Source: Nocardioides marmoribigeumensis (GTDB lineage Bacteria > Actinomycetota > Actinomycetes > Propionibacteriales > Nocardioidaceae). From it: a DNA stretch of 64,000 bases. The stretch's first letter is position 1. Each line of letters starts with the position of its first letter. Positions 40,798-54,073 of this stretch are shown piece by piece. Location: positions 2,728,001 through 2,792,000 of the forward strand of contig NZ_JAVDYG010000001.1 of NCBI RefSeq assembly GCF_031458325.1. The letters are read 5' to 3'. The position numbers and the translations under genes were made by a program. Under the pieces are notes generated by a model. It saw only the letters and a list, made by a program, of their open reading frames with translations. It had not been told where the DNA came from and ran no database searches.

Positions 40798-41436
40798 TCA
40801 GGGCGACGGGGTGTGGCGTTCCTCGCTCGGGGGCTCGTGCCCCTCGGAGAGGTCGTCGTCGTCCTGCAGGCGCTCCTCGATCTCGGAGAGCAGGGTGCGC
40901 AGCTCGGAGCGGACGTAGTCGCGGGTCGCCACCTCGCCCAGCGCCATGCGCAGGCTGGCCATCTCGCGAGCCAGGAACTCCATGTCGGCGTGGGCACGGG
41001 AGTTGTCGAGGCGGTCCTGCTCGGCGATCACCCGGTCGCGGTCCTCCTGGCGGTTCTGCGCGAGCAGGATCAGCGGTGCGGCGTACGACGCCTGGAGGCT
41101 GAGCATCAGGGTCAGGAAGATGAAGGGGTAGGCGTCGAAGGCCCCCGGCGCCAGCCAGTTCCACGCCACCCACGCGATGACGAAGGCGGTCATGTAGAGC
41201 AGGAACCGCGCGGTGCCCATGAAGCGCGCGAACTGCTCGGCGAAGCGGCCGAACGCGTCGTCCTCGAAGCGGGGCCGCCGCAGTCGGCGGGTGTCCTTGG
41301 GCTGGTCGAGCCGCTCCTGGCGATCGGCCTCGCTGCGCTCGCGGTGCTCGCGGCGCAGGGTGCGGCGCTGCTCGTCGCGGCGCTCGCTGCGGCGCACGCG
41401 ACCGCGCTCCGGTCGGGTCGAGCCGAGGTCAGACAC
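40798..41436 (-). CDS. DUF1003 membrane protein
   Basis: A 212-residue protein with an Arg/Glu-rich N-terminus, two membrane helices (FLLYMTAFVIAWVAWNWL and FIFLTLMLSLQASYAAPLIL) and the LILLAQNRQEDRDRV loop typical of DUF1003, then a coiled-coil tail. Function unknown. The start ATG overlaps the end of the upstream MgtE-like gene by 8 bases, so the pair is co-translated. Confidence 0.9.
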   Translation of the reverse strand: MSDLGSTRPERGRVRRSERRDEQRRTLRREHRERSEADRQERLDQPKDTRRLRRPRFEDDAFGRFAEQFARFMGTARFLLYMTAFVIAWVAWNWLAPGAFDAYPFIFLTLMLSLQASYAAPLILLAQNRQEDRDRVIAEQDRLDNSRAHADMEFLAREMASLRMALGEVATRDYVRSELRTLLSEIEERLQDDDDLSEGHEPPSEERHTPSP

Positions 41437-42685
41437 GGAGCCTCCCCACGCCGGCCGGGCGCTCGCGCCAGCCCTCGGGCAGGAGGTGGTCGAGCAGGTC
41501 GTCGACGGTCACCGCACCGAGCAGGCGCCCGTCCTCGTCGACGACGGGCGCGGCGACGAGGTTGTACGCCGCCAGGTGGCGGGCGACGTCCTCGAGGCGG
41601 GCGGCGGGGTCGATCGCGTCCTGCGAGCCCTTGACGATCGCGCCGAGCATCGTGCGGGGCGGCTCACGCAGCAGGTGCTGGATGTGGGCGACGCCGATCA
41701 GCCGGCCGGTCGGAGGCTCGAGCGGGGGCCGGCAGACGTAGACCGCGGCCGCGAGCGACGGGGTGAGGTCGGCGTTGCGGACGTGCGCGAGCGCCTCGGC
41801 GACCGTCGCGTCCGGGGGGAGGACCACCGGCTCGGTGGTCATCATGCCGCCGGCCGTGCGCTCCTCGTAGGACATCAGCCGCCGGACGTCCTCGGCCTCC
41901 TCGGGCTCCATCAGGCTCAGGAGGTTCTCGGCGGTCTCGGGCGGGAGCTCGGCGATCAGGTCGGCGGCGTCGTCGGGGGACATCTCCTCGAGCACGTCGG
42001 CGGCGCGCTCGTCGGGCAGGTCGCCGAGGATCTCGACCTGGTCCTCCTCGGGCAGCTCCTCCAGGACGTCGGCGAGGCGCTCGTCGTCGAGGGCGGCGGC
42101 GATCTCGCGGCGGCGCTTGGCCGGCATCTCGTGGATGACGGTCGCGAGGTCGGCCGGCTTCATCTCCTCGAGCGCGGCCAGCACGTGGGTGGCGCCCTGC
42201 TCGCCGTCGGTCTCGAAGCCGGTCACCTCGTGCCAGTCCACGACGTGGGTCTGGCCCTTGCGGCCGAAGCGCTTGGAGTCCTCCTGGAGCGCGACCTTGC
42301 TGATCACCCAGTCGCGGTTGCGCTGCTGGTCGATGGCGAGGTCGTAGACGGTGCCCTGGACCCCGGTCTCGCGCACCGTCACACGCCGGTCGAGCATCTG
42401 CGCCACGGCCAGGGTCTCGTTGTTGCGCTGCTCGAAGCGGCGCATGTTGACCACCCCGGTGGTGATCACCTGGCGACCGTCGATGCTCGTGACCCGCGTC
42501 ATCGGCAGGAAGATCGAGCGCCGCCCGAAGACCTCCACCACCAGGCCCACCACGCGCGCCGGCCGGTTGGTCTTCTGCAGCGTGATGACCAGGTCGCGCA
42601 CCCGGCCGACCTGGTCGCCGGCGGGGTCGAACACCTGCAGGCCGGTCAGGCGGCCCACGAAGACGCGGTTCGGCGAGGTGCTCAC
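41429..42685 (-). CDS. Soluble MgtE-N/CBS domain protein with PRC-like N-terminus
   Basis: A 418-residue protein with two PRC-barrel-like segments (VFDPAGDQVGRVRDLVITLQ and a second near residue 110), an MgtE_N helical superhelix with repeated acidic blocks (LEELPEEDQVEILGDLPDER, AADVLEEMSPDDAADLIAEL), and a CBS pair (TTEPVVLPPDATVAEALAHV; DPAARLEDVARHLA). No membrane helices are present, so it is not a Mg transporter but a possible Mg or nucleotide sensor. GTG at 42685 is chosen from MSTSPNRVFVGRL; upstream frame is antisense to the sulfotransferase gene. Overlaps DUF1003 gene; same operon. Confidence 0.88.
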   Translation of the reverse strand: MSTSPNRVFVGRLTGLQVFDPAGDQVGRVRDLVITLQKTNRPARVVGLVVEVFGRRSIFLPMTRVTSIDGRQVITTGVVNMRRFEQRNNETLAVAQMLDRRVTVRETGVQGTVYDLAIDQQRNRDWVISKVALQEDSKRFGRKGQTHVVDWHEVTGFETDGEQGATHVLAALEEMKPADLATVIHEMPAKRRREIAAALDDERLADVLEELPEEDQVEILGDLPDERAADVLEEMSPDDAADLIAELPPETAENLLSLMEPEEAEDVRRLMSYEERTAGGMMTTEPVVLPPDATVAEALAHVRNADLTPSLAAAVYVCRPPLEPPTGRLIGVAHIQHLLREPPRTMLGAIVKGSQDAIDPAARLEDVARHLAAYNLVAAPVVDEDGRLLGAVTVDDLLDHLLPEGWRERPAGVGRLRV

Positions 42686-42721
42686 ACGCTCCAGCGTAGT
42701 GGTCGGCGTACCCTGCCCCGG

Positions 42722-43852
42722 GTGAGCACACCCGCGCGGCTGACACTGCATCTCGGGCTGCCGAAGAGCGGGACGACCTACCTCCAGGGGCTGCTCGCCT
42801 CCCACCGCGAGGAGCTGCGGGCCGCCGGGGCGGTCTACCCGTTCGTCCGCCCCGAGGCGATGTTCCGGGCCGCGGTCGAGGTCCGCGAGCAGCACGACCT
42901 GTGGGGGTTCGGCCACCAGGAGGTCGACGGGACCTGGCAGGCGCTGGTCGACCGGGTCCGGGAGGTGGGCCTGCCGGGGATCATCAGCCACGAGATCCTG
43001 GCCGGCGCCTCGCCCGAGCACGCGGCCCGTGTCGCGGCCACGCTCAAGGGGTTCGAGGTGCACCTGGTCGTGACCTGTCGCGACCCGCTGCGCCAGGCCA
43101 TGGCGCACTGGCAGGAGGAGGTCAAGAACGGCCGCCCGTGGTCGTACGCCGAGTTCGTCGCCGCCCTGCCGACCCCCGCGGAGTCGACCGCGGCCGAGCT
43201 CGGCTTCTGGCGCTCGCAGGACCTCGTCGACGTGCTCGACCGGTGGTCGGCCGCGGTGCCGGGCGCCACCGTGCACGTGGTGACCGCGCCCCCGGCGGGC
43301 TCACCTCCCGAGGTGCTGTGGCGTCGCTTCGCCGAGGCGGCCGCCCTGTCGCCCGACGTGCTGGACCCGCGCGAGACCGACCCGGCGTCGGGCGCCAACC
43401 GCTCCCTCGGGGCGGCCCAGGTGCGCCTGCTGCGCGAGGTCCTCGCGGTGCTCGACGGCCGCATCGGGCAGCCCGACCACGCCCACGTGGTCAAGCGCGG
43501 CTTCGCCCAGCAGACCCTGGCCGCGCGGGCGGGAGAGCCGGCCCGGCCCACGGCCGGGCTCGCCCGTCTCGTCCAGGAGCGGACGGCCGCGTGGCCCGAG
43601 GTGGTCCGCGAGCGGGGGTGGCAGGTGCACGGGGACCTCGCCGACCTCGAGGTGCACGTGCCCGAGCCCGGGCCGGACCCCGACCAGGTGCCGGCCGACA
43701 CCCTCGGCACGCCGGAGGAGCTGGCGCAGGGGCTGCTCGAGGAGGTCGCCCGGCGTCACGACGAGGCGGGCCGCGACGGCCTGCTGAGCCGGGTCAGTCG
43801 CCGAGTGCGGCGAGGGCGTCAGCAGCCTCCGACACCGCGTCGGCCCCGCTGA
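42722..43852 (+). CDS. Sulfotransferase-like protein 1
   Basis: A 376-residue P-loop protein beginning MSTPARLTLHLGLPKSGTTY, where PKSGTTYL matches the PAPS 5'-phosphosulfate loop of sulfotransferases. Another shared element is VTCRDPLRQAMAHWQEEVKN near residue 120. GTG at 42722 is the first good start after the divergent MgtE-like gene (36-bp gap). Members add sulfate to glycans, lipids or peptides. It is one of three related genes in the 42.7-52.8 kb island. It overlaps the end of the convergent EEP gene by 59 bases. Substrate unknown. Confidence 0.8.
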   Translation: MSTPARLTLHLGLPKSGTTYLQGLLASHREELRAAGAVYPFVRPEAMFRAAVEVREQHDLWGFGHQEVDGTWQALVDRVREVGLPGIISHEILAGASPEHAARVAATLKGFEVHLVVTCRDPLRQAMAHWQEEVKNGRPWSYAEFVAALPTPAESTAAELGFWRSQDLVDVLDRWSAAVPGATVHVVTAPPAGSPPEVLWRRFAEAAALSPDVLDPRETDPASGANRSLGAAQVRLLREVLAVLDGRIGQPDHAHVVKRGFAQQTLAARAGEPARPTAGLARLVQERTAAWPEVVRERGWQVHGDLADLEVHVPEPGPDPDQVPADTLGTPEELAQGLLEEVARRHDEAGRDGLLSRVSRRVRRGRQQPPTPRRPR

Positions 43853-44921
43853 TCGTCAGCACCGCCCGCACCATCGGGTGGTCGGTGCTCCACCGCACCA
43901 GGGCCGAACGGTCGACGACGTAGCCCGACCACGGCAGCTCGGGGGTGCCCATGATCCAGTCGATCTGGATCCTGGGGGGCGGCGCGCACGACCCGCCGCC
44001 GGCCGACCCGCCGTTGGAGGCGCGCAGCAGGCCGGAGCCGACCATGGGGCAGAAGAAGTCGGCGCGGTCGTTCATGTCGCCGGTCATCACGACCGGGACG
44101 TCGGGCTCGGCCTGGCGCAGGCCGCGGACCAGCTCGATCTCGCGCTGCACGGCGACCTTGCGCCAGCGGGCGTTGTTGCCGAACTGCCGGGTGCTGGCCG
44201 GGTTGTGGACGTTGAGGACCCACAGCTCCTTGCCGTTGGCGATGCTCCGCAGCTTGATGTAGGGCATCTGGCGGGGGTGCCCGCGGAAGTACGGGATCGT
44301 CACCGTGTGCGACTCGACCAGCTCGAACATCGAGCGTCGCCACATGATGCTGTTCTCGGCGTTGCGCGCCCCCATCGAGGTGCCGGGGTAGATGGCGTAG
44401 TCGGGCAGCCGCGAGGTGAGCGCGCGGGCCTGGTCCCACTGGAGCTCCTGCAGGCCGACGATGCCGACCCCGTTGCCGCTGATCAGCCGGGCGGCGCCCG
44501 CGGCCCTGGTCACGCCGCTGGGCCGGCCCTTCTTGCCCCCGCCGCTCCCGGCGGTGTGGCTGCTGCCGAGCACGTTGAAGGAGCTCACCACGACCTGGAC
44601 GGTCGGCGCGGGGGCGTTGCGGGCCCGCTCCGGCTGCTTGGTGAGCTTGAGCGGGTTGGGGAAGGCAGCCTTGGCGGAGCCGGACAGGCGCGGCATCGGG
44701 GCGCGCTTCCTGGCGGCGCGGGCCTTGGCGTCGATCGTGGTGCTCGGGGCGACGTCCTCGTGCACGCTGCCCCAGCCGCCGTCGGCCGAGTCGGACCTGG
44801 TGACCCTGGTGGTGGGAGAGGTCGTCGCGACCGCCTGGACGCCGTACGTGCCGGCGATGCCGAGCACGACGAGCAGCGAGGTGCCGATGACCCAGTCCAT
44901 CGGCCGGACGTTCCACTTCAC
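43794..44921 (-). CDS. Membrane-anchored endonuclease/exonuclease/phosphatase-fold protein
   Basis: About 375 residues if GTG at 44921 is used (MKWNVRPMDWVIGTSLLVVL); GTG at 44990 would add 23 residues. One membrane helix near residues 9-30, then an EEP domain with SSFNVLGSSH, GLQELQWDQ, NVHNPAS, TGDMND and STDHPM, the usual Asn, Glu, His, Asp-Asn and Asp-His active-site residues. The catalytic domain would face outside. The 50765 gene is a paralogue. It may act as a nuclease, phosphodiesterase or sphingomyelinase-like enzyme; the substrate is unknown. Confidence 0.85.
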   Translation of the reverse strand: MKWNVRPMDWVIGTSLLVVLGIAGTYGVQAVATTSPTTRVTRSDSADGGWGSVHEDVAPSTTIDAKARAARKRAPMPRLSGSAKAAFPNPLKLTKQPERARNAPAPTVQVVVSSFNVLGSSHTAGSGGGKKGRPSGVTRAAGAARLISGNGVGIVGLQELQWDQARALTSRLPDYAIYPGTSMGARNAENSIMWRRSMFELVESHTVTIPYFRGHPRQMPYIKLRSIANGKELWVLNVHNPASTRQFGNNARWRKVAVQREIELVRGLRQAEPDVPVVMTGDMNDRADFFCPMVGSGLLRASNGGSAGGGSCAPPPRIQIDWIMGTPELPWSGYVVDRSALVRWSTDHPMVRAVLTISGADAVSEAADALAALGD

Positions 44922-45064
44922 AGGCCGATGGTACGTGTTGGACAGGGGCCCCGACGACCGTTCCAGGGGGCTCGGTGGGGGTCCCGCCACGCGCCTCGGG
45001 GGTCCCGAACCGGACGCCCGCCCGACGATAGGCTGACAGCCCGACCGGAGGCAGCGGAGGAACG

Positions 45065-46705
45065 ATGACAGGCGCGGAGCAGCACCCGCTCGCGCCCTTG
45101 CGCTCGCTCCGGGTCGACGACGAGGGCCTGCTGCTCGAGCCGGACCCCGCCGACGCCGGTCACGACGTCGCCCTCGACGTGCTCCTCGACGACCGGCGCA
45201 TCTGGTCGTTCTGGACCGTCCGCGACACCCACGAGGAGGGAGCGGCGCTCCGGCTCCCGTGGCCCCCGGCCCTGGCCCGCTTCCTCGACGGACGCACGAC
45301 CGTGAGCCTGGTCGACCACGTCCACCGCGCCGAGGTCGGCCGGGCCGAGGCCGTCCTGGGGTCCGGCGAGGGCCGCATCGCCGTGGTCGACAAGCAGGGG
45401 AGGCCGCTGGGCCTCGACAAGTCCCTGGTGCTCTCGCGGCTGTTCGACTCCCGCGACCCCGAGCAGGTCGCTCCGCTCCTGGACTCGATCGAGCAGGTCC
45501 TGGCCGAGCTGCGGGCGTGCGGCATCGAGGCGTTCCTGGCCTACGGCTCGCTGCTGGGCGCGGTGCGCGAGGGCGGCCTCATCGGTCACGACAACGACGC
45601 CGACCTGGGCTACGTCAGCACCTACGACCACCCCGCGGAGGCCGTGGCCGAGTCGTTCCGCCTGCAGCGCGCCCTGGTGGAGCGGGGCCTGCCGGTCACG
45701 CGCTACAGCGGCATGGGCCTCCGCGTCGACGTGTCCGAGCCCGACGGCGGCACCCGCGGCCTGGACGTCTTCGGCGGGTTCATGCGCGAGGGCAGCCTCT
45801 ACCTCATGGGCGAGGTCGGGGCGCCCTTCGAGCGCGACTGGGTCTGGCCGCTGTCGGAGGTGAGGTTCGAGGGCCGCACGTTCCCGGCTCCGGCGGCGCC
45901 CGACAAGCTCCTCGAGGCGATGTACGGCCCCACCTGGCGCACGCCCGACCCGGCGTACAAGTTCACGACGCCGCAGTCGACCACCCGCCGCCTCGACGGC
46001 TGGTTCCGCGGCACGCGCGGCGGTCGCATCCTCGAGTGGGACGTCGCCAAGCCGCGCGAGCTCGCCGGCCGCACGCTGCGCCCGAGCGCCTTCGCCCGCT
46101 GGGCCGTCGGCACTCTCGAGGGGCCGTTGCGTCCCACGACCCTGCTCGACGTCGGGTGCGGTGCCGGCGTGGACGCGACCTGGACCGCGCGCGAGGGCCT
46201 GAGCACGGTCGGGGTCGACTTCAAGCCGATCCACCACCGCCACCTGGCCGCCCGCGCCGAGGCGGAGGGGCTCCCGCTGCGCTTCCACTGGACCAACCTC
46301 AACGAGGTCCGCTCGGTGATGGCCGGGGGCGCCCAGCTCGCCCGGCTGCCCGGGCCCCGGTCGGTGGTGAGCCGCCACGTCCTCGACGCGGTGGACGGCG
46401 ACGGTCGCCGGGGCTTCTACCGCCTGGCCGACATGGCGACCCGGGGCGGTGGCCGCACGCTGGTGCAGGTGCGTCGGGCTCCCCGGGGTGCCGGCGAGGA
46501 CCGGGTGACCCCGCCCCAGGCGGGCGGTCGTGGACGGTCCCGACCCCTCGACGTCGACGCGCTGGTCGCCGAGGTGGCCGCCCACGGCGGTCGGGTGCTG
46601 GAGCGCGTGGACCTGACCGAGACCGCGGCGGACGCCCCCGAGGGCGGCTTCCCCCGGGGCGAGGAGACGAGCGACGTGACGAGACTGGTGATGACATGGC
46701 ACTGA
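45065..46705 (+). CDS. LicD-like nucleotidyltransferase fused to SAM methyltransferase
   Basis: A 546-residue protein. Residues about 130-310 form a LicD/fukutin-type nucleotidyltransferase with AYGSLLGAVREGG (159 on) and HDNDADLGY (175 on), the metal-binding Asp pair. Residues about 350-500 form a class I methyltransferase with LLDVGCGAGVDATW (360 on). LicD enzymes attach phosphocholine or similar phospho groups to surface sugars. The fusion suggests a phosphorylated and then methylated substituent. ATG at 45065 has GGAGGA upstream. It overlaps the next gene by 10 bases. Specific substrate unknown; the N-terminal 120 residues are unassigned. Confidence 0.85.
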   Translation: MTGAEQHPLAPLRSLRVDDEGLLLEPDPADAGHDVALDVLLDDRRIWSFWTVRDTHEEGAALRLPWPPALARFLDGRTTVSLVDHVHRAEVGRAEAVLGSGEGRIAVVDKQGRPLGLDKSLVLSRLFDSRDPEQVAPLLDSIEQVLAELRACGIEAFLAYGSLLGAVREGGLIGHDNDADLGYVSTYDHPAEAVAESFRLQRALVERGLPVTRYSGMGLRVDVSEPDGGTRGLDVFGGFMREGSLYLMGEVGAPFERDWVWPLSEVRFEGRTFPAPAAPDKLLEAMYGPTWRTPDPAYKFTTPQSTTRRLDGWFRGTRGGRILEWDVAKPRELAGRTLRPSAFARWAVGTLEGPLRPTTLLDVGCGAGVDATWTAREGLSTVGVDFKPIHHRHLAARAEAEGLPLRFHWTNLNEVRSVMAGGAQLARLPGPRSVVSRHVLDAVDGDGRRGFYRLADMATRGGGRTLVQVRRAPRGAGEDRVTPPQAGGRGRSRPLDVDALVAEVAAHGGRVLERVDLTETAADAPEGGFPRGEETSDVTRLVMTWH

Positions 46706-46941
46706 GAGACCTGGCGCGCATGGCGAGGTCGGCCCCGCGCCTCGAGCAGCGCCTGCGCGACCTCGAGGTCGAGGTGCAGGAGTGCCGGCAGGTCAACCTG
46801 CGCCTCGCCGAGCTGATGGACGTCGTGGCCGAGCTGCTGCTGCCCGTGGCCCAGCAGGACCCGGCCCGGGTCGAGGAGCTGCTGGCTCGCTACCACGAGA
46901 GCGTCGGCGGCCCGCCGCGGCCGCCGGTCGAGGGGACGTGA
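46696..46941 (+). CDS. Small coiled-coil protein (DUF6752-like), 81 aa
   Basis: An 81-residue protein starting MALRDLARMARSAPRLEQRL, with a heptad-like helix through LRDLEVEVQECRQVNLRLAE and a proline-rich end. It resembles DUF6752, a small family found in actinobacterial surface-glycan loci (from memory). It overlaps the LicD fusion by 10 bases and its TGA overlaps a GTG at 46938, which opens the relay leading to the second sulfotransferase gene. Function unknown; possibly a scaffold or partner. Confidence 0.7.
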   Translation: MALRDLARMARSAPRLEQRLRDLEVEVQECRQVNLRLAELMDVVAELLLPVAQQDPARVEELLARYHESVGGPPRPPVEGT

Positions 46942-46994
46942 GCGGGGCGTGGGCAGGACGTGCGACAGGTGAGCGACAGGTGAGCGACAGGTGA
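46938..46994 (+). other. Leader ORF linking the coiled-coil gene to the 11-bp relay (18 aa)
   Basis: GTG at 46938 overlaps the TGA of the coiled-coil gene (46939-46941) and the frame runs to TGA at 46992-46994, which overlaps GTG 46991; from there GTG AGC GAC AGG TGA ends over the sulfotransferase GTG at 47002. Stop and start codons thus connect two genes without a gap. Confidence 0.45.
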
Positions 46995-47005
46995 GCGACA
47001 GGTGA
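46962..47005 (+). repeat. Four tandem 11-bp repeats with nested GTGA start/stops
   Basis: gcgacaggtga is repeated four times (46962, 46973, 46984, 46995), with a partial fifth copy gcgaca to 47011. GTG codons at 46969, 46980, 46991 and 47002 are each followed by AGC GAC AGG TGA except the last, so each four-codon ORF ends in a TGA overlapping the next GTG. The last GTG starts the second sulfotransferase gene. Change of copy number would still keep the chain. Confidence 0.95.
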
Positions 47006-48318
47006 GCGACACAGCCCCGGCGGTCTCGGGGGGCGAGGCGACCACCGTCTCGTCGCGCTGGGACAGACCCGCACGGGTCTTCCTCCACATCGGCCTGCCC
47101 AAGACCGGCACGACCTACGTCCAGCGGGTCCTCTGGGAGAACAAGGCCCGCCTGCGCGACAACGGCGTGCTCCTGCCCGGCCGGCACCGCCGCCGCCACC
47201 TGCTGGCCTCGCTCGACGTCCGCGAGGACCCCAAGCTCCAGCGGCGCCCGGGCGACGTCAGCCACCCCTGGCAGGACCTGGTCGAGGAGATCCTCGAGTG
47301 GGACGGCGACGCCGAGGTGAGCCACGAGTTCTTCGCCGCCGCATCCACCCCGCAGGTGCAGCGCATCGTCGACAACCTGCAGGACCGCGAGCTCCACGTG
47401 GTGGTGACCGCGCGGGCGATGACCGAGCTGGGGGTCTCGCGCTGGCAGGAGGACGTCAAGAACGGCGGCACCCTCCCGGTCGACGACTACCCCGCCCGCG
47501 AGGACTACGACCCCACCGACGAGTGGGGCTGGGGCAGCTTCGACCTCGCCGACATCCTCGAGCGCTGGTCGGCGGTCGTCCCTCCCGAGCGCATCCACGT
47601 CCTGGTTGTCGCGCCGGGCTCCGGCGCGCCGGCTGAGCTGTGGCTGCGCTTCGCCGAGGTGATGGGTCTCGACGGTGACGACTACGAGATCCCCGAGGCC
47701 CCGGTCAACACCTCGCTCGGCCTGGTGGAGGTCGAGCTGCTGCGCCGGGTCAACGCCAAGCTGGAGGGCTTCTCCTCGGCGATGGCGCGGGGTCGCTGGA
47801 TCCGGGGATACCTCGCAGAGGGTGATATTCTGCCGAGCCGGCGCGAGAAGTTCCGTGCGGGGGATGCGAAGCGGTCCGACCTCCAACGACGGGGGGAACG
47901 AGCGGTCCAGCTCCTGCGCGCCGGAGGGTACGACGTCCGGGGGGACCTGGAGGCGCTGCTGCCGCCGGTGGCAGACGGTCTCCGTCATCCCGACGAGGTG
48001 TCAGCCGAGGAGCTTCTCGACAGCGCGACGACCGCCATTGCCCGCTTGCTGCGGGATGTCCGGACCCTGACCCGAGAGCGAGACGAGCTCATGGGTCGTG
48101 ACCTCGGGCCGGGCCCCGTGACCGGGGACTCGGACGGTCAGGCACCATCGACAACAACATCAGCAACAGCATCATCAACAGGGCACCAGGGGTCGACACA
48201 GGCGTCGGCCGCACCGGCGGAGCAGCTCGAGGGCGCCCCGTTGCGGACCAAGGTCCGGCGCAGGCTCAGGCGGCTGCGTGACAGGTTCCGAACCGAGCAG
48301 AGTGGGGCGACGACGTGA
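47002..48318 (+). CDS. Sulfotransferase-like protein 2
   Basis: A 438-residue protein with the P-loop FLHIGLPKTGTTYVQRVLW near residues 27-45 and VTARAMTELGVSRWQEDVKN near 135, the same WQExxKN block as protein 1. The second RD pair is RA here, so the PAPS 3'-phosphate contact may differ. After residue 370 a low-complexity Ser/Thr/Ala-rich linker (APSTTTSATASSTGHQGSTQ) leads to a basic tail (VRRRLRRLRDRFR). The stretch 47810-48200 is less GC-rich than its surroundings. GTG start is placed by the 11-bp relay; the stop overlaps the phospholipase D-like gene as GTGA. Confidence 0.8.
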   Translation: MSDTAPAVSGGEATTVSSRWDRPARVFLHIGLPKTGTTYVQRVLWENKARLRDNGVLLPGRHRRRHLLASLDVREDPKLQRRPGDVSHPWQDLVEEILEWDGDAEVSHEFFAAASTPQVQRIVDNLQDRELHVVVTARAMTELGVSRWQEDVKNGGTLPVDDYPAREDYDPTDEWGWGSFDLADILERWSAVVPPERIHVLVVAPGSGAPAELWLRFAEVMGLDGDDYEIPEAPVNTSLGLVEVELLRRVNAKLEGFSSAMARGRWIRGYLAEGDILPSRREKFRAGDAKRSDLQRRGERAVQLLRAGGYDVRGDLEALLPPVADGLRHPDEVSAEELLDSATTAIARLLRDVRTLTRERDELMGRDLGPGPVTGDSDGQAPSTTTSATASSTGHQGSTQASAAPAEQLEGAPLRTKVRRRLRRLRDRFRTEQSGATT

Positions 48319-49682
48319 CTGACCGGGCGACAACGAGCACGCCGACCATGAGGCGCCGAGGTGCGCTCCTGGTCCTGACGGTGGCGGCCGCGGTGCTGGC
48401 CGCTCTCCTCGTGGCCACGCCGGGACAGGCGGTCACGCCCGCCACCCGGCAGGTCGCGCAGCGCACGACGACCGGGTTCAAGCCCGAGGCCGGCGCGCAC
48501 TTCAACAACCCCAACGGCGGGGACGCAGCGCACCGGGCGATCGAGGACGTCGTCTACCGCTCGATCCAGCACACCCACAAGGGTGACGAGATCCGGATCT
48601 CGCTGTTCTCCTTCGACCGCAAGCGGATGTCGGACGCCCTGATCCGGGCCTACCGACGCGGCGTCGCGGTGCAGCTGCTGCTCAACGGGCACCAGAACAC
48701 CGCCGCGATGAAGCAGATGCGCCACGTCTTCGGCGCCAACCGGGCCCGTCGCAGCTTCATCTACCAGTGCGAGCGGGGCTGCCGCGGCGGCTCCTTCCTG
48801 CACAGCAAGTTCTACCTGTTCTCGCGCTCGGGCATCGCCAAGAACGTCGTCATGGTCGGGTCGAACAACTTCACCTACAACGCCCAGGTCCACCAGTGGA
48901 ACGACCTGCTGGTGATGAACGACCGGCCCAACACCTACGACGCGTTCGAGAACGTCTTCGAGCAGATGAAGAAGGACACGCGCGCCGACCCGCTCTACCA
49001 GATCTTCAAGATCAGCTCCGGCTCGACGCTGCGGGTCTTCCCGTTCCCCAAGGCCACGGCCACCAACGACCCGATCATCCGCATCCTGAGCCAGGTGCAC
49101 TGCCGGGGCGCGGCCAAGGGCTACGGCACCAACGGACGCACCCGCATCCGCATCGACCAGCACCGCATCGGCGGGGAGCGCGGCGGCTGGCTCGCGCGCC
49201 GGCTGGTCAGGCTCTGGGCCGCGGGGTGCGACATCAAGGTGATGCACGGCTCGGTCGATGCGCCGGTCAAGCGGGCCTTCCGCGCGCGCACCAAGCGGGG
49301 TCTCATCCCGGTGCGCGCCAACGGGTTCGACTACGACCGCGACGGGTTCCTCGACGTCTACACCCACCACAAGTACATGACGATCTCGGGCTACTACGGC
49401 GACAACCGCCGCACCAACATGGTGATGACGGGCTCGAGCAACTGGGCGGGCATCGGCGTCACGGGTGACGAGGTCGTCTACACCACGACCTCCACGCGCT
49501 ACCGCCGTCAGTACGAGCGCAACTGGAACTACATCTGGACCCACGGCTCCCGGGCGGTGTCCTACCGGGGCGGGGCGCGCGCCGGCACCTCCTACCGCAC
49601 GGCCGACGGCTCGATGGTCGACTCCGGTCTGCTCGGTGACACCGAGCCCAAGCCCGGCGGTCGCCACTGGGAGAACGACTGA
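48315..49682 (+). CDS. Secreted phospholipase D-like (HKD) protein
   Basis: A 455-residue protein with a signal peptide (MRRRGALLVLTVAAAVLAAL) and two HKD half-sites: HSKFYLFSRSG (His163, Lys165) and HHKYMTISGYYGDN (His351, Lys353). The phosphodiesterase family includes phospholipases, nucleases and cardiolipin synthases; this one is exported. A motif GSNNFTYNAQVHQWNDLLVM follows the first site. GTG overlaps the stop of the sulfotransferase (GTGA) and its stop overlaps the glycosyltransferase ATG (TGATG), so it belongs to the island operon. Substrate could be lipid, nucleic acid or a phosphodiester-linked polymer; inference. Confidence 0.9.
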   Translation: MTDRATTSTPTMRRRGALLVLTVAAAVLAALLVATPGQAVTPATRQVAQRTTTGFKPEAGAHFNNPNGGDAAHRAIEDVVYRSIQHTHKGDEIRISLFSFDRKRMSDALIRAYRRGVAVQLLLNGHQNTAAMKQMRHVFGANRARRSFIYQCERGCRGGSFLHSKFYLFSRSGIAKNVVMVGSNNFTYNAQVHQWNDLLVMNDRPNTYDAFENVFEQMKKDTRADPLYQIFKISSGSTLRVFPFPKATATNDPIIRILSQVHCRGAAKGYGTNGRTRIRIDQHRIGGERGGWLARRLVRLWAAGCDIKVMHGSVDAPVKRAFRARTKRGLIPVRANGFDYDRDGFLDVYTHHKYMTISGYYGDNRRTNMVMTGSSNWAGIGVTGDEVVYTTTSTRYRRQYERNWNYIWTHGSRAVSYRGGARAGTSYRTADGSMVDSGLLGDTEPKPGGRHWEND

Positions 49683-50614
49683 TGCCAGACCCGCTCCGGC
49701 GGCGTCCCCCGACGCCGCCGGGTGGGCGGCCCCGCGTGGCCGCCCTGACGATGGTGCGTGACGAGCCCGTCATGCTGCCGCGCTGGGTCGAGCACTACTC
49801 CCGCCAGTGCGGGGGAGCGGGTGCGCTGCTGGTCATCGACGACAACACCACCGACGGGTCGACCGACGACCTGGAGTGCCCGGTGCTGCGCGTCCCCCCG
49901 TTCGTGCACCGGCCCTTCGAGCCGGCCCGGATGGGGTTCGTCAGCCACGTGGCCTCGGCGCTGCTGGAGTCCTACGACGCGGTGGTCTTCTGCGACGCCG
50001 ACGAGTTCCTGGTCGCCGAGCCGGAGCGCTACGACACCCTGGCCGACCTGGTCGGCGCCAAGCCGCGCACCAAGGTGTTCGGAGCGGTCGGCATGAACGT
50101 CGTGCACCATGTCGGCGCCGAGCCCGACCTCGACCCGGCCGCCCCCATCTCCGAGCAGCGGGCATTGGCGAAGTTCGTGCCGCTGATGTGCAAGCCGGCC
50201 ATGAAGAAGGTCCACGGGGCCTGGACCGCCGCCTCCCACGGGCTCAAGCACACCGAGTGGGCGATCGACCCCGAGCTGTGGCTGTTCCACGCCAAGTTCG
50301 CCGACCGGGAGGCCCTGCGCATGGCCGCCGAGGGCCGCCGTGCCGCGGTGCTGCACGACAACCGTCCGCAGGAGACGAGCTGGAAGTTCACCGGCGACAA
50401 GATGGTCCGCCTGCTCGACCAGATGACCGCCCACCTGCCCGAGACCGACCCCTACGCCGCGATCCCCGAGTTCGCCCCCACGACCCACCAGCTGCGGCGG
50501 GTGGTCGTGCAGGAGGACGACGCCTGGCGGGCGCGAGGAGGGGGCCGGCAGATCCAGCGGATGCGCAAGGGCGAGCTGGTGCGCATCCCCGAACGGTTCC
50601 GCGGGACTTTCTAG
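49682..50614 (+). CDS. Glycosyltransferase family 2-like protein
   Basis: A 310-residue GT-A-fold protein of the Glyco_tranf_2_4 type: MVRDEPVMLPRWVEHYSRQC, VIDDNTTDGSTDDLE and the DxD-like FCDADEFLV are seen. ATG at 49682 overlaps the preceding stop. No membrane helix is apparent, so it probably works on the cytoplasmic face on a nucleotide-sugar donor. Its position between the PLD-like and EEP genes, with sulfotransferases around, points to surface glycan synthesis. The acceptor is unknown. Confidence 0.85.
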   Translation: MPDPLRRRPPTPPGGRPRVAALTMVRDEPVMLPRWVEHYSRQCGGAGALLVIDDNTTDGSTDDLECPVLRVPPFVHRPFEPARMGFVSHVASALLESYDAVVFCDADEFLVAEPERYDTLADLVGAKPRTKVFGAVGMNVVHHVGAEPDLDPAAPISEQRALAKFVPLMCKPAMKKVHGAWTAASHGLKHTEWAIDPELWLFHAKFADREALRMAAEGRRAAVLHDNRPQETSWKFTGDKMVRLLDQMTAHLPETDPYAAIPEFAPTTHQLRRVVVQEDDAWRARGGGRQIQRMRKGELVRIPERFRGTF

Positions 50615-50630
50615 TCGCCCCGGCGTGTCG

Positions 50631-50651
50631 CCCGGATTTTCCGGCTTTCTT
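50631..50651 (+). terminator. Weak hairpin after the glycosyltransferase
   Basis: ccgga-ttt-tccgg gives a 5-bp stem followed by ctttcttcc, a short pyrimidine tract. It lies just after the glycosyltransferase stop and before the separately started EEP gene; it may end the island's first operon. Confidence 0.4.
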
Positions 50652-50764
50652 CCTCCATTCTGTCCCGCCAGTCACACGCGTCCCTTACGGTCGACAGGTC
50701 CGCAGGCTCCGGAGCCCCCGCTCCCGGTCGCGGACGGTCTTGTCGTCGGATGTGGGAGGTAGCA

Positions 50765-51712
50765 GTGGCTGCGGCACGCGAAGTGGGGCTCGGCGCTCGG
50801 ACCCGGGACGGACGGCGCAGGAGTCGTCGGCTGGTCGCCACGGCCGTCGTCGGCGCGGCTGCCTTCGCCGGCGGCCTGTCGCTGCAGGGTGCTCCGGCGG
50901 ACGCCGTCGCCCCCCGTGCGGCCTCGAGCTTGCGCGACGCGACCCCCGCGACCTTCCGCGTCTCCTCGTTCAACGTGCTCGGCGCGAGCCACACCGCACC
51001 GGGCGGCAACAAGGCCCGGATGGCCTCCGGCGAGACCCGCATGCAGTGGACGACCCAGCTGCTGGCCAACAACCGCGTCGACGTGGTGGGCATGCAGGAG
51101 ATGCAGCCGTCGCAGCAGGCCGCCTTCCGGCAGATCCAGGGCGACTCCTGGAACCTCTACCCGGCCGGCAGGCTCAACCGGATGGACGGGCACAACTCCA
51201 TCGCCTGGCGCACCGACACGTGGGAGCTGGTCGAGGCCAACACCATCGCCATCCCGTACTTCCACGGGGTCAAGGTGCAGATGCCCTACATCCTGCTGCG
51301 CAACATCGCCTCGAACCGCCTGGTGTGGTTCGCCAACTTCCACAACCCGGCCAACACCAAGTTCGCCGGCATCAACCTCCAGTGGCGCGCGCAGGCGCGG
51401 ATCATCGAGGTGGGGCTGGCCAACAAGCTCTGGGAGACGGGCGTGCCGCTGATCTACACCGGCGACATGAACGAGACCACGCCGTACTTCTGCGCGCTCA
51501 CCACCGGCTCGCCGATGAAGAGCGCCAGCGGCGGCTCGTGGGGCACCAGCACGTGCTCGCCGCCGCCTCGCCTGAAGATCGACTGGATCTTCGGCTCCCA
51601 CGACGTGCGCTTCGCGAACTACCGGGTCAATGACGGTACGTTGGTCGACAAGGCATCGGACCACCCGATGATCCTCGCCGACGTGACCGTCTCCAGCCGT
51701 CCGCGCTCCTGA
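50765..51712 (+). CDS. Secreted endonuclease/exonuclease/phosphatase-fold protein
   Basis: A 315-residue protein with an N-terminal signal (RRSRRLVATAVVGAAAFAGG at about 20-39, then SLQGAPADA). The EEP domain shows SSFNVLGASH, GMQEMQPSQQ, NFHNPAN, TGDMNE and SDHPM, intact relative to the paralogue at 43794. GTG at 50765 follows GGGAGGTAGCA. It differs from the paralogue by being cleavable or soluble, not anchored. A 150-bp upstream gap gives it its own promoter. Possible roles: extracellular nuclease or phosphodiesterase; unproven. Confidence 0.88.
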   Translation: MAAAREVGLGARTRDGRRRSRRLVATAVVGAAAFAGGLSLQGAPADAVAPRAASSLRDATPATFRVSSFNVLGASHTAPGGNKARMASGETRMQWTTQLLANNRVDVVGMQEMQPSQQAAFRQIQGDSWNLYPAGRLNRMDGHNSIAWRTDTWELVEANTIAIPYFHGVKVQMPYILLRNIASNRLVWFANFHNPANTKFAGINLQWRAQARIIEVGLANKLWETGVPLIYTGDMNETTPYFCALTTGSPMKSASGGSWGTSTCSPPPRLKIDWIFGSHDVRFANYRVNDGTLVDKASDHPMILADVTVSSRPRS

Positions 51713-51766
51713 CCAGCGGCCCGCAGGGACGGGCCGCCGCGACAGGAGCACGGAAGGAGCACGGCT

Positions 51767-52801
51767 GTGGCCCACACCGTCGTGCTGCACATCGGGGCGA
51801 TGAAGTCGGGCACCAGCACGATCCAGCACCAGCTCCAGCACCACCCCGAGGTCCTCGCGGCCCAGGGCTTCCGGTTCCCGGGGCACCGGTGGCGCCAGCA
51901 GATCCTGGGTGTGCTCGACGTCCTCGACCAGACCCGCGACGGGCAGGTCGTCCCCGGCTCGGAGGGCGCGTGGCAGCGGCTGCTCGACGAGCTCGCGGCC
52001 TTCGAGGGCACCGGCGTGATCTCGATGGAGTTCCTCGGCCCCACCCCGCCCGACTACATCGCCACGGTGGTCGACTCGCTGGCCCCCGCGCGGGTGCAGG
52101 TGGTGATGACCGCCCGCGACCTCGGTCGCAACGTGCCGGCGATGTGGCAGGAGGGCCTGAAGAACCGCGCCACCTGGACCTGGCCGGAGTACCTCGCCGA
52201 CATCGCGACCACCGAGAAGCCGCGGGCGGGGCACGCCCGGCGCTTCTGGCGGCAGATGAACTACCCCTTCATCGTCGAGAAGTGGCTGCAGGTGGTCGGG
52301 CGCGACGCCTTCACGCTGGTCACCGTGCCGCACCCGGGCGCGGGTCCCGGTGTGCTGTGGGACCGCTTCTGCTCCGTCGTCGGGCTGAAGGCCCACGACT
52401 TCCCCCCGGTCGAGGTGCAGAACGTCTCCCTGAGCGCGGCCTCGGCCCAGGTGCTGCGGGCGCTCAACGAGACCCTGCCCCAGGACCTCCCGCTCGTCCA
52501 CTACCAGAAGGTGGTCAAGCACCTGCTCGCCAAGCAGGGCATGCCCGCCCCCACCGGTCCCGCCGACCGGATCGGGTTCTCCGCCGAGTGGGTCGAGGCC
52601 CGGGCGGCCCGGCAGATCGCCCGGCTCCGGGCCCTGGACGTGCCGGTCGTCGGCGACCTCGAGGAGCTGCGCCCGGTGGCGCAGGCCGGGATCGACCCCA
52701 CCACCTGCCCGCCCGAGGAGGTCCTCCGGGCCGCGGTCCACTCGCTGGCTCACCTCGTCGGCGTGTGGCCCACCGCACAGGCGCTGTTAGGTAGTCCATA
52801 G
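51767..52801 (+). CDS. Sulfotransferase-like protein 3
   Basis: A 344-residue protein starting MAHTVVLHIGAMKSGTSTIQ, a P-loop variant (MKSGTSTI) of the PAPS-binding loop, with MTARDLGRNVPAMWQEGLKN near residue 125 repeating the WQExxKN block. GTG at 51767 follows GGAAGGAGCACG. It is the last gene of the island; 72 bases later an acyl-CoA dehydrogenase begins. Among the three sulfotransferase-like proteins it has the most divergent loop, so its donor specificity is least certain. Confidence 0.78.
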   Translation: MAHTVVLHIGAMKSGTSTIQHQLQHHPEVLAAQGFRFPGHRWRQQILGVLDVLDQTRDGQVVPGSEGAWQRLLDELAAFEGTGVISMEFLGPTPPDYIATVVDSLAPARVQVVMTARDLGRNVPAMWQEGLKNRATWTWPEYLADIATTEKPRAGHARRFWRQMNYPFIVEKWLQVVGRDAFTLVTVPHPGAGPGVLWDRFCSVVGLKAHDFPPVEVQNVSLSAASAQVLRALNETLPQDLPLVHYQKVVKHLLAKQGMPAPTGPADRIGFSAEWVEARAARQIARLRALDVPVVGDLEELRPVAQAGIDPTTCPPEEVLRAAVHSLAHLVGVWPTAQALLGSP

Positions 52802-52873
52802 CGCTCTCCGTGGTCGTGCGGAGCCCCCGTCACTAGGCTGGTGACTTCCTGTCGTACGACCGAAAGGACCGCC

Positions 52874-54073
52874 ATGGGTCGCCTCGCGCAGACCGAGGGT
52901 CTCACCGACATCCAGCAGGAGATCCTGTCGACCGTCCGCGACTTCGTGGACAAGAAGATCATCCCGGTCGCCCAGGAGCTGGAGCACGCCGACGAGTACC
53001 CCGAGGAGATCGTCGAGGGCCTCAAGGAGCTCGGCATCTTCGGCCTCATGATCCCCGAGGAGTACGACGGCCTGGGCGAGTCGCTGCTGACCTACGCCCT
53101 CGTGGTCGAGGAGATCGCGCGCGGGTGGATGAGCGTCTCCGGCGTGATCAACACCCACTTCATCGTGGCCTACATGCTGATGCGCCACGGCACCGAGGAG
53201 CAGAAGAAGAAGTACCTCCCCAAGATGGCGACGGGCGAGGTGCGCGGTGCGTTCTCGATGTCCGAGCCGGGGCTGGGCTCCGACGTCTCGGCGGTGAAGA
53301 CCAAGGCCACCAGGCTCGACGACGGGTCCTACGAGGTCACCGGCCAGAAGATGTGGCTGACCAACGGCGGCACCTCCACGCTGGTGGCGACGCTGGTGAA
53401 GACCGACGAGGGCGCCGACTCGGTCTACAAGAACATGACCACGTTCCTCGTCGAGAAGGAGCCGGGCTTCGGCGAGACCGCCCAGGGCGTCACGGTGCCC
53501 GGCAAGCTCCACAAGATGGGCTACAAGGGCGTCGAGACCACTGAGCTCATCCTCGACAAGCACAAGATCTCCGCCGACCAGATCCTCGGCGGTGAGCCCG
53601 GCAAGGGCTTCTTCCAGATGATGGACGGCGTCGAGGTCGGCCGGGTCAACGTGGCGGCCCGGGCCTGCGGCATCGCGCTGCGCGCCTTCGAGCTCGCCAT
53701 CGACTACGCCCAGCAGCGCGAGACCTTCGGCAAGAAGATCGCCGACCACCAGGCCGTGCTCTTCCGCCTCGCGGAGATGGCGACCAAGGTCGAGGCCGCC
53801 CACACGATGATGGTCAAGGCCGCCCGCCTCAAGGACTCCGGCAAGCGGATGGACGTCGAGGCCGGCATGGCCAAGATGCTCGCCTCGGAGTACTGCAACG
53901 AGGTCGTCGAGGCGTCGTTCCGCATCCACGGCGGCTACGGCTACTCCAAGGAGTACGAGATCGAGCGCCTCTACCGCGAGTCGGCGTTCATGCTGATCGG
54001 CGAGGGCACCTCCGACATCCAGAAGATGATCATCGGCCGCAACCTGCTCAAGGACTACGCGCTCAAGGGCTGA
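52874..54073 (+). CDS. Acyl-CoA dehydrogenase (MCAD/SCAD type)
   Basis: A 399-residue flavoenzyme: FSMSEPGLGSDVSAVKTK and GQKMWLTNGG form the FAD/substrate loops, and the C-terminus reads IGEGTSDIQKMIIGRNLL. The Glu in EGT sits at the position of the MCAD catalytic base, unlike the two dehydrogenases at 12-14 kb. ATG at 52874 follows AAAGGACCGCC. It ends at a strong hairpin, so it is its own unit. Substrate chain length is not readable from sequence; short to medium straight chain is most likely. Confidence 0.94.
   Translation: MGRLAQTEGLTDIQQEILSTVRDFVDKKIIPVAQELEHADEYPEEIVEGLKELGIFGLMIPEEYDGLGESLLTYALVVEEIARGWMSVSGVINTHFIVAYMLMRHGTEEQKKKYLPKMATGEVRGAFSMSEPGLGSDVSAVKTKATRLDDGSYEVTGQKMWLTNGGTSTLVATLVKTDEGADSVYKNMTTFLVEKEPGFGETAQGVTVPGKLHKMGYKGVETTELILDKHKISADQILGGEPGKGFFQMMDGVEVGRVNVAARACGIALRAFELAIDYAQQRETFGKKIADHQAVLFRLAEMATKVEAAHTMMVKAARLKDSGKRMDVEAGMAKMLASEYCNEVVEASFRIHGGYGYSKEYEIERLYRESAFMLIGEGTSDIQKMIIGRNLLKDYALKG

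What the first reader, a model, noticed from the sequence alone, without database searches (positions are those of the whole stretch)
42722..52801. Ten-kb surface island with three sulfotransferase-like, two EEP, one PLD, one GT2 and a LicD-methyltransferase protein
The genes break an otherwise conserved housekeeping order. Sulfotransferases, LicD and GT2 point to a decorated glycan; secreted PLD-like and EEP-fold phosphodiesterases could trim phosphodiester bonds in the same polymer. I infer a module that builds and edits a sulfated and/or phospho-substituted surface polymer. No transporter, polymerase or flippase is visible inside the island, so it may be a tailoring set for a polymer made elsewhere.
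Basis: partly seen in the sequence, partly recalled or inferred. Interest (0 to 1): 0.68.

Follow-up and report, generated by a model that had tools for sequence, protein, structure and literature searches.

The report
Galactan-decorating gene cassette of Nocardioides
This stretch of DNA is not a stray island: nearly all the related Nocardioides loci examined carry it at the same place, and it probably adds sulfate and phosphate-linked side groups to a galactose-based cell-wall polymer whose backbone genes lie a megabase away, pointing to a wall chemistry for which I found no description.

Summary
The "inserted island" reading needs changing. In 65 named Nocardioides/Marmoricola-type contigs with both flanks, the interval between the MgtE-like gene and the acyl-CoA dehydrogenase holds LicD-methyltransferase in 64, sulfotransferase in 61, EEP in 47, PLD in 43; DUF6752 is on all 65 contigs. 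It is a conserved locus with variable cargo.

The polymer made elsewhere can be proposed. In three relatives (G002, G008, G022) the LicD-MT/DUF6752/sulfotransferase/PLD module lies inside a galactan operon (LCP ligase, GlfT-like transferases, UDP-galactopyranose mutase, GlfT2, ABC exporter); in G008 the usual site is empty. Sulfotransferase genes lie within 5 kb of GlfT2 in 10 of 17 genomes, all different genera (0.4 expected). The window's genome has the same galactan operon 1.0 Mb away. ST2 folds like glycan sulfotransferases; the LicD domain matches FKRP bound to CDP-ribitol; some loci add a formylglycine-type sulfatase.

Best reading: a tailoring cassette for a GlfT2-type wall galactan, adding sulfate and a phosphodiester-linked substituent, with secreted EEP/PLD enzymes remodelling it. 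The chemistry is inferred, not shown.

The parts
42722..43852 (+). ST1, sulfotransferase-like (HLGLPKSGTTYLQ P-loop)
   Evidence: PF13469 E 6.2e-7; 34% identical to ST2; in alignment A3 with invariant K34/E109/R138 (ST2 numbering)
43794..44990 (-). EEP1, endonuclease/exonuclease/phosphatase-fold protein with an N-terminal hydrophobic segment
   Evidence: PF03372 E 1.2e-10; catalytic N, E, H, DxN, D, DH residues invariant in A6
45065..46705 (+). LicD nucleotidyltransferase-fold domain fused to a SAM methyltransferase
   Evidence: PF04991 E 4.4e-12; profile hit to FKRP E 1.2e-10; model pLDDT 86; Foldseek to FKRP/CDP-ribitol 6kam E 3.5e-8, 27% id; methyltransferase domain Z 18
46696..46941 (+).
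   Evidence: PF20537 E 5.3e-23; found by HMM in 80 of 80 named loci
47002..48318 (+). ST2, sulfotransferase; the paralog next to LicD-MT/DUF6752 across the genus
   Evidence: model pLDDT 85; Foldseek 3rnl sulfotransferase E 1.2e-5; VIA Z 15 to NDST1, 14.8 to 3-OST-3
48315..49682 (+). secreted PLD-superfamily protein, two HxK...GSxN half-sites with the usual D replaced by S
   Evidence: PF13091 E 2.3e-26, two stretches; A5; N-terminal signal-like segment by inspection
49682..50614 (+). GT2-like glycosyltransferase (PF13704)
   Evidence: a GT2 homolog in 7 of 65 syntenic intervals
50750..51712 (+). EEP2, secreted EEP-fold protein
   Evidence: PF03372 E 5.5e-11; active-site residues invariant
51767..52801 (+). 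ST3, sulfotransferase-like
   Evidence: 30% identical to ST2; in A3
41429..42700 (-). left flank: PRC/MgtE_N/CBS protein (syntenic anchor; end approximate)
   Evidence: PF03448, PF00571, PF05239; anchor
52841..54073 (+). right flank: acyl-CoA dehydrogenase (syntenic anchor)
   Evidence: PF00441 and others; anchor

Best explanation
The locus is a tailoring cassette for a GlfT2-type cell-wall galactan. A separate operon in this genome (C1:3768415-3779861) makes the polymer from UDP-galactofuranose (Glf), polymerises it (GlfT-like, GlfT2), exports it through an ABC transporter and probably ligates it to peptidoglycan (LCP). In the cytoplasm, ST1-3 transfer sulfate from PAPS to the polymer, and LicD-MT transfers a phosphodiester-linked substituent (most likely a polyol phosphate) from a CDP-donor, with its methyltransferase domain methylating the substituent or chain end; DUF6752 may help assemble LicD-MT with ST2. 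The GT2 adds a side sugar. Outside the membrane, EEP1, EEP2 and PLD hydrolyse phosphodiesters to remodel the polymer. Shown: gene identities, fold of ST2, LicD/FKRP relationship, genus-wide conservation, alternative placement inside the galactan operon, adjacency of ST and GlfT2, presence of APS kinase. Inferred: every chemical step, the acceptor, and the EEP/PLD substrate.
For: Conserved syntenic cassette: of 65 contigs with both flanks, LicD-MT 64, ST 61, EEP 47, PLD 43; DUF6752 on all 65. Galactan operon composition in G000 and in G008/G002. Module inside that operon between Glf and GlfT2 in G008 and G002, and within 6 kb of GlfT2 in G022. Empty usual site in G008, only one EEP there in G002, EEP plus an aldolase-like gene but no LicD/ST in G022. 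ST within 5 kb of GlfT2 in 10 of 17 genomes, ten genera, 0.38 expected, P about 2e-13 under random placement. ST2 fold, invariant K34, E109, R138, APS kinase in G000. LicD/FKRP; LicD proteins transfer phosphate with the group (PMC4873967). G1P dehydrogenase and an NTP-transferase next to the module in the galactan operon. CxPxR-type sulfatase in 6 intervals and AT3-SGNH acyltransferase in 7.
Against: In G000 itself no gene of the cassette is near the galactan operon; the link is by relatives. G000 lacks the G1P dehydrogenase and only has a sub-threshold glycerol-3-phosphate cytidylyltransferase-like gene, so the CDP-donor is unknown. Some Nocardioidaceae have ST genes but no detected GlfT2 (G001, G009, G019), though G001 and G019 are fragmentary. 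ST clusters also sit beside a carboxylase/HMGL-like operon and other housekeeping genes. The random-placement P ignores shared ancestry of the ten genera. No chemistry was measured.
Confidence: 0.6

Rival explanations
1. The cassette decorates a different surface polymer, such as the poly(glycerol/ribitol phosphate) teichoic acid whose TagF-like enzymes lie at C1:1362364-1366111, not the galactan.
For: In G000 an EEP-fold protein and a weak Sulfotransfer_3 protein are adjacent to two PF04464 enzymes. LicD-family enzymes act in teichoic acid synthesis (PMC4873967). A teichoic pathway would supply a CDP-polyol.
Against: That EEP is only remotely similar to EEP1/2 and that Sulfotransfer_3 protein was not recognised by the ST family HMM. 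No cassette gene was found beside TagF-like genes in the other loci read, whereas the module itself lies inside the galactan operon in three genomes. G002 has the full module but no PF04464 match.
Confidence: 0.15
2. The proteins have unrelated jobs: STs sulfate small metabolites or lipids, EEP and PLD are secreted nucleases that scavenge extracellular DNA, and the locus is merely a permissive site that collects genes.
For: ST genes occur in many other neighbourhoods; PLD matches nucleases Nuc and NucT and MitoPLD; cargo varies between species.
Against: LicD-MT, DUF6752 and ST stay together across 64-80 loci and move together into the galactan operon; EEP and PLD co-occur (Fisher P 8e-6) and are fused in some relatives; ST2 is closest in fold to polysaccharide sulfotransferases.
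Confidence: 0.17
3. A lic1-like phosphocholine or phosphoethanolamine decoration system.
For: In Marmoricola-type loci an EamA transporter and an NTP-transferase precede LicD-MT, the order of licB-licC-licD; EamA and NTP-transferase co-occur (P 0.003). EEP/PLD are absent from those loci (P 9e-6 and 6e-5).
Against: No choline kinase seen; the NTP-transferase is nearest to inositol-1-phosphate cytidylyltransferase and GlmU rather than LicC in PDB; in the galactan operons the partner is a glycerol-1-phosphate dehydrogenase.
Confidence: 0.08

Closest known systems
Mycobacterial galactan pathway (Glf, GlfT1, GlfT2; PMC7168186)
   Same: Glf, a two-domain-marked GlfT2 (PF17994, PF19320) and an ABC exporter and LCP protein in one operon in G000 and relatives
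   Different: Here the operon or a separate locus carries sulfotransferase, LicD-MT, DUF6752, PLD and EEP genes, not known from the mycobacterial pathway; arabinan genes were not looked for
LicD/FKRP family (lic1 operon LicD; fukutin-related protein, ribitol-phosphate transferase; PMC4873967, PMC6965139)
   Same: Sequence profile and fold match to FKRP, conserved HDxDxD motif
   Different: Fused to a methyltransferase, has an extra N-terminal beta-rich domain, and is linked to DUF6752 and a sulfotransferase
PAPS-dependent glycan sulfotransferases (NDST1, 3-OST) and bacterial 3rnl
   Same: Fold (Z 14-16), P-loop lysine and a conserved arginine
   Different: Sequence identity only 10-17%; ST2 and ST3 have no Pfam hit; expanded to as many as 17 copies per genome in Nocardioidaceae
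WbdD-type O-antigen chain terminators (methyltransferase plus phosphate chemistry)
   Same: Pairing of a methyltransferase with phosphate transfer in one protein; weak profile hit of the methyltransferase domain to WbdD (E 0.002)
   Different: LicD fold instead of a kinase; no evidence for chain termination
EEP mannosyl-6-phosphatase 4c1r
   Same: Best-annotated solved relative of EEP1/EEP2 (E 1.8e-8), an EEP that acts on a phosphorylated glycan
   Different: Only the core domain aligns; substrate here unknown

Membership tests
PAPS-dependent sulfotransferase (ST1-3) | Sulfotransferase fold | tested here: met
   ST2 model pLDDT 85; Foldseek 3rnl E 1.2e-5; VIA Z 15.8 NDST1, 15.2 3rnl, 14.8 3-OST-3 over 219-232 residues. 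ST1 passes the PF13469 cut-off
PAPS-dependent sulfotransferase (ST1-3) | Conserved 5'-phosphosulfate loop lysine and 3'-phosphate arginine | tested here: met
   K34 (PKTGTT) and R138 (TARD) invariant in 62 sequences; assignment of R138 and of E109 as a candidate base is by analogy
PAPS-dependent sulfotransferase (ST1-3) | Sulfate transfer from PAPS | not testable with these tools
   APS kinase present in the genome, so PAPS can be made
LicD family | LicD/FKRP nucleotidyltransferase-type domain with acidic motif | tested here: met
   PF04991 4.4e-12; FKRP 6kaj profile E 1.2e-10, 6kam Foldseek E 3.5e-8; D176, D178, D180 invariant
LicD family | Use of a CDP-activated alcohol | not testable with these tools
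   Donor unknown; only indirect neighbours
lic1 (licABCD) phosphocholine operon | Choline kinase, choline permease, CTP:phosphocholine cytidylyltransferase and LicD together | tested here: not met
   The window locus has only LicD; some Marmoricola-type loci have EamA and NTP-transferase but no kinase was seen
GlfT2 galactan operon (as the partner system) | Glf, GlfT2, ABC exporter, LCP in one operon | tested here: met
   G000 C1:3768415-3779861; G008
EEP superfamily | Conserved metal/catalytic residues N, E, H, DxN, DH | tested here: met
   Invariant in 22 sequences; PF03372 above cut-off
PLD superfamily (HKD enzymes) | Two HxK(x)4D...GSxN motifs | tested here: inconclusive
   Both HxK and GSxN present, but D is replaced by S in both half-sites of the window protein
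Horizontally acquired genomic island | Patchy distribution, tRNA/integrase boundary, atypical composition | tested here: not met
   LicD-MT present in 64 of 65 syntenic intervals; no tRNA in the window; GC 0.69-0.75 as in other parts of the window. Integrases were not searched for specifically

The most novel reading that the evidence does not exclude
Most Nocardioides, and probably much of the Nocardioidaceae, build a peptidoglycan-linked galactofuranan that is sulfated by a lineage-expanded sulfotransferase family and capped or substituted by a LicD-methyltransferase working with DUF6752, then remodelled outside the cell by paired EEP and PLD phosphodiesterases: a wall polymer class not described before.
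Probability: 0.3. Interest if true: 0.72.

Novelty: new variant of a known kind. Interest (0 to 1): 0.56.

Why it matters
If right, it gives a first genetic address for tailoring of a non-mycobacterial GlfT2 galactan, a function for DUF6752 (a family with no known role), and an explanation for the large, unannotated sulfotransferase expansion in Nocardioidaceae. It also makes a direct test possible: purify the wall polymer of a cultured Nocardioides and look for sulfate and phosphodiesters with and without the locus.

Tried and rejected
Horizontal-island reading: rejected on conservation. licABCD membership: rejected for the window locus. Teichoic-acid polymer as the acceptor: kept as a rival. 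Literature: no paper found that joins LicD with actinobacterial sulfotransferases, Nocardioides with sulfotransferase function, or Nocardioides wall galactan; the library holds only open papers, so this is weak evidence of absence. PDB profile search with the ST alignment gave a spurious designed-protein hit (9i38) and only a weak 3rnl hit, so the fold search was used instead. In the LicD-MT VIA comparison only the methyltransferase half was really compared; the LicD half rests, and the N-terminal domain (about residues 1-110) was not identified. My gene caller under-called DUF6752; a six-frame HMM scan corrected this.
Full report
1. What is in the window. The window is G000:C1:2728001-2792000 of a 4.44-Mb single-contig genome. 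PLD follows ST2 with a 4-base overlap and GT2 starts on the last base of PLD, so LicD-MT, DUF6752, ST2, PLD, GT2, EEP2 and ST3 read as one + strand series; EEP1 is on the opposite strand and overlaps the end of ST1 tail to tail. EEP2 and PLD begin with signal-like segments and EEP1 with a hydrophobic segment (inspection; no predictor was run).

2. It is a conserved locus. A scan of 84,980 species genomes with an alignment of LicD-MT found 331 loci encoding relatives; the best 80, kept for study, come from Nocardioides, Marmoricola, Pimelobacter and unnamed Nocardioidaceae-type MAGs. I called genes and clustered them. In the 65 contigs that hold both flanks, the stretch between the MgtE-like gene and the acyl-CoA dehydrogenase contains LicD-MT in 64, sulfotransferase in 61, EEP in 47, PLD in 43. 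A six-frame HMM scan finds DUF6752 in all 80 contigs. The loci were fetched because they encode LicD-MT, so its own frequency is biased upward; the others are not selected in that way. LicD-MT was not found outside the family among 35 relatives searched. Cargo varies: AT3-SGNH acyltransferase in 7 intervals, GT2 in 7, sulfatase in 6, EamA transporter in 7, NTP-transferase in 8. EEP and PLD co-occur (Fisher P 8e-6) and are never found with the NTP-transferase (P 9e-6 and 6e-5); related species share ancestry, so these P values are too optimistic.

3. The galactan link. In G008 the order is LCP, GlfT-like, Glf, PLD, ST, LicD-MT, ST, DUF6752, NTP-transferase, glycerol-1-phosphate dehydrogenase, GlfT2, ABC membrane protein, ABC ATPase, amidase/FG-GAP protein. 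G002, a member of the window's own genus, has the same frame with PLD x2, EEP, several ST and LicD-MT between Glf and GlfT2. In G022 the GlfT2, glycerol-1-phosphate dehydrogenase, DUF6752, ST and LicD-MT lie within about 7 kb. In G008 the usual MgtE/ACAD site is empty (158 bp between the genes); in G002 it holds one EEP; in G022 it holds two EEP and an aldolase-like gene but no LicD-MT or ST. So the module has two alternative addresses, one of them inside the galactan operon. Independently, an ST gene lies within 5 kb of GlfT2 in 10 of 17 genomes that have GlfT2, one per genus, against 0.38 expected by random placement (P about 2e-13; the match list was truncated, so 10 is a lower bound). In some genera GlfT2 is flanked by arrays of up to eight ST genes (L034, L043, L153-L155). 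The window's genome carries the plain galactan operon at C1:3768415-3779861, about 1.0 Mb from the cassette.

4. Enzymes. ST2: confident model, nearest folds are heparan sulfate N- and 3-O-sulfotransferases and the bacterial sulfotransferase 3rnl (Z 14-16) well above other sulfotransferases (Z 9-11); P-loop lysine, E109 and R138 invariant; the genome has APS kinase, so PAPS can be made. LicD-MT: FKRP match by profile and by fold, with the FKRP/CDP-ribitol complex among the hits, and an intact methyltransferase domain. Published work states that LicD-domain proteins use CDP conjugates and transfer the adjacent phosphate (PMC4873967). EEP: all catalytic residues invariant; nearest annotated solved relative is a mannosyl-6-phosphatase. 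PLD: nuclease-like, with both HKD aspartates replaced by serine in the window protein; four related loci encode an EEP domain followed by a PLD-like half, which ties the two activities together. The sulfatases in six loci carry a CVPAR motif, the formylglycine-type signature, which fits a sulfated substrate.

5. Mechanism and limits. Steps shown: gene identities, conservation, physical linkage to the galactan genes, folds. Steps inferred: sulfation of the galactan, transfer of a phosphodiester substituent by LicD-MT, methylation, scaffolding by DUF6752, extracellular remodelling by EEP/PLD. The donor of LicD-MT is open: glycerol-1-phosphate dehydrogenase plus NTP-transferase accompany it in galactan operons, an EamA/NTP-transferase pair (reminiscent of licB/licC) in Marmoricola-type loci, and neither in G000, where a sub-threshold glycerol-3-phosphate cytidylyltransferase-like gene and TagF-like enzymes exist. 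Rival acceptor: the teichoic-acid-like polymer, since an EEP-fold protein and a weak Sulfotransfer_3 protein are adjacent to two TagF-like genes in G000.

6. Verdict. Observation confirmed; interpretation partly supported, with the island view replaced by a conserved galactan-tailoring cassette. New variant of a known kind. Interest 0.56.

Noticed in passing
46969-47012: Four head-to-tail copies of an 11-base unit GTGAGCGACAG end at the start codon of ST2; 11 is not a multiple of three, so copy-number change would shift the start context (possible on/off switching).
   Followed up: no
L026 11524-15078 (G000:C1:2135524-2139078): Three more ST-family genes directly after a carboxyltransferase, biotin carboxylase and HMGL-like gene; the same arrangement recurs in several other genera (L156-L159, L163, L171, L172, L174). 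Reason for the link to this acyl-CoA operon unknown.
   Followed up: partly
L126 8058-15665 (G000:C1:1360058-1367665): EEP-fold protein and a weak Sulfotransfer_3 protein beside two TagF-like (PF04464) enzymes, in the middle of housekeeping genes.
   Followed up: partly
L109 8623-9927, L111 13142-14476, L116 16352-17749, L124 16283-17662: EEP domain fused to a degenerate PLD-like half in related loci.
   Followed up: partly
L034, L043, L153, L154, L155: Arrays of up to eight tandem ST genes around GlfT2; in L155 they lie between H+-pyrophosphatase and topoisomerase I genes.
   Followed up: partly
L128, L129, L130, L132: Further LicD-MT copies without ST, some with DUF6752, some beside a separate methyltransferase-only homolog.
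   Followed up: no
L033 8504-10690, L041 4041-6224: Large protein with a cutinase-like domain and RCC1 repeats within or beside the cassette in two relatives.
   Followed up: no
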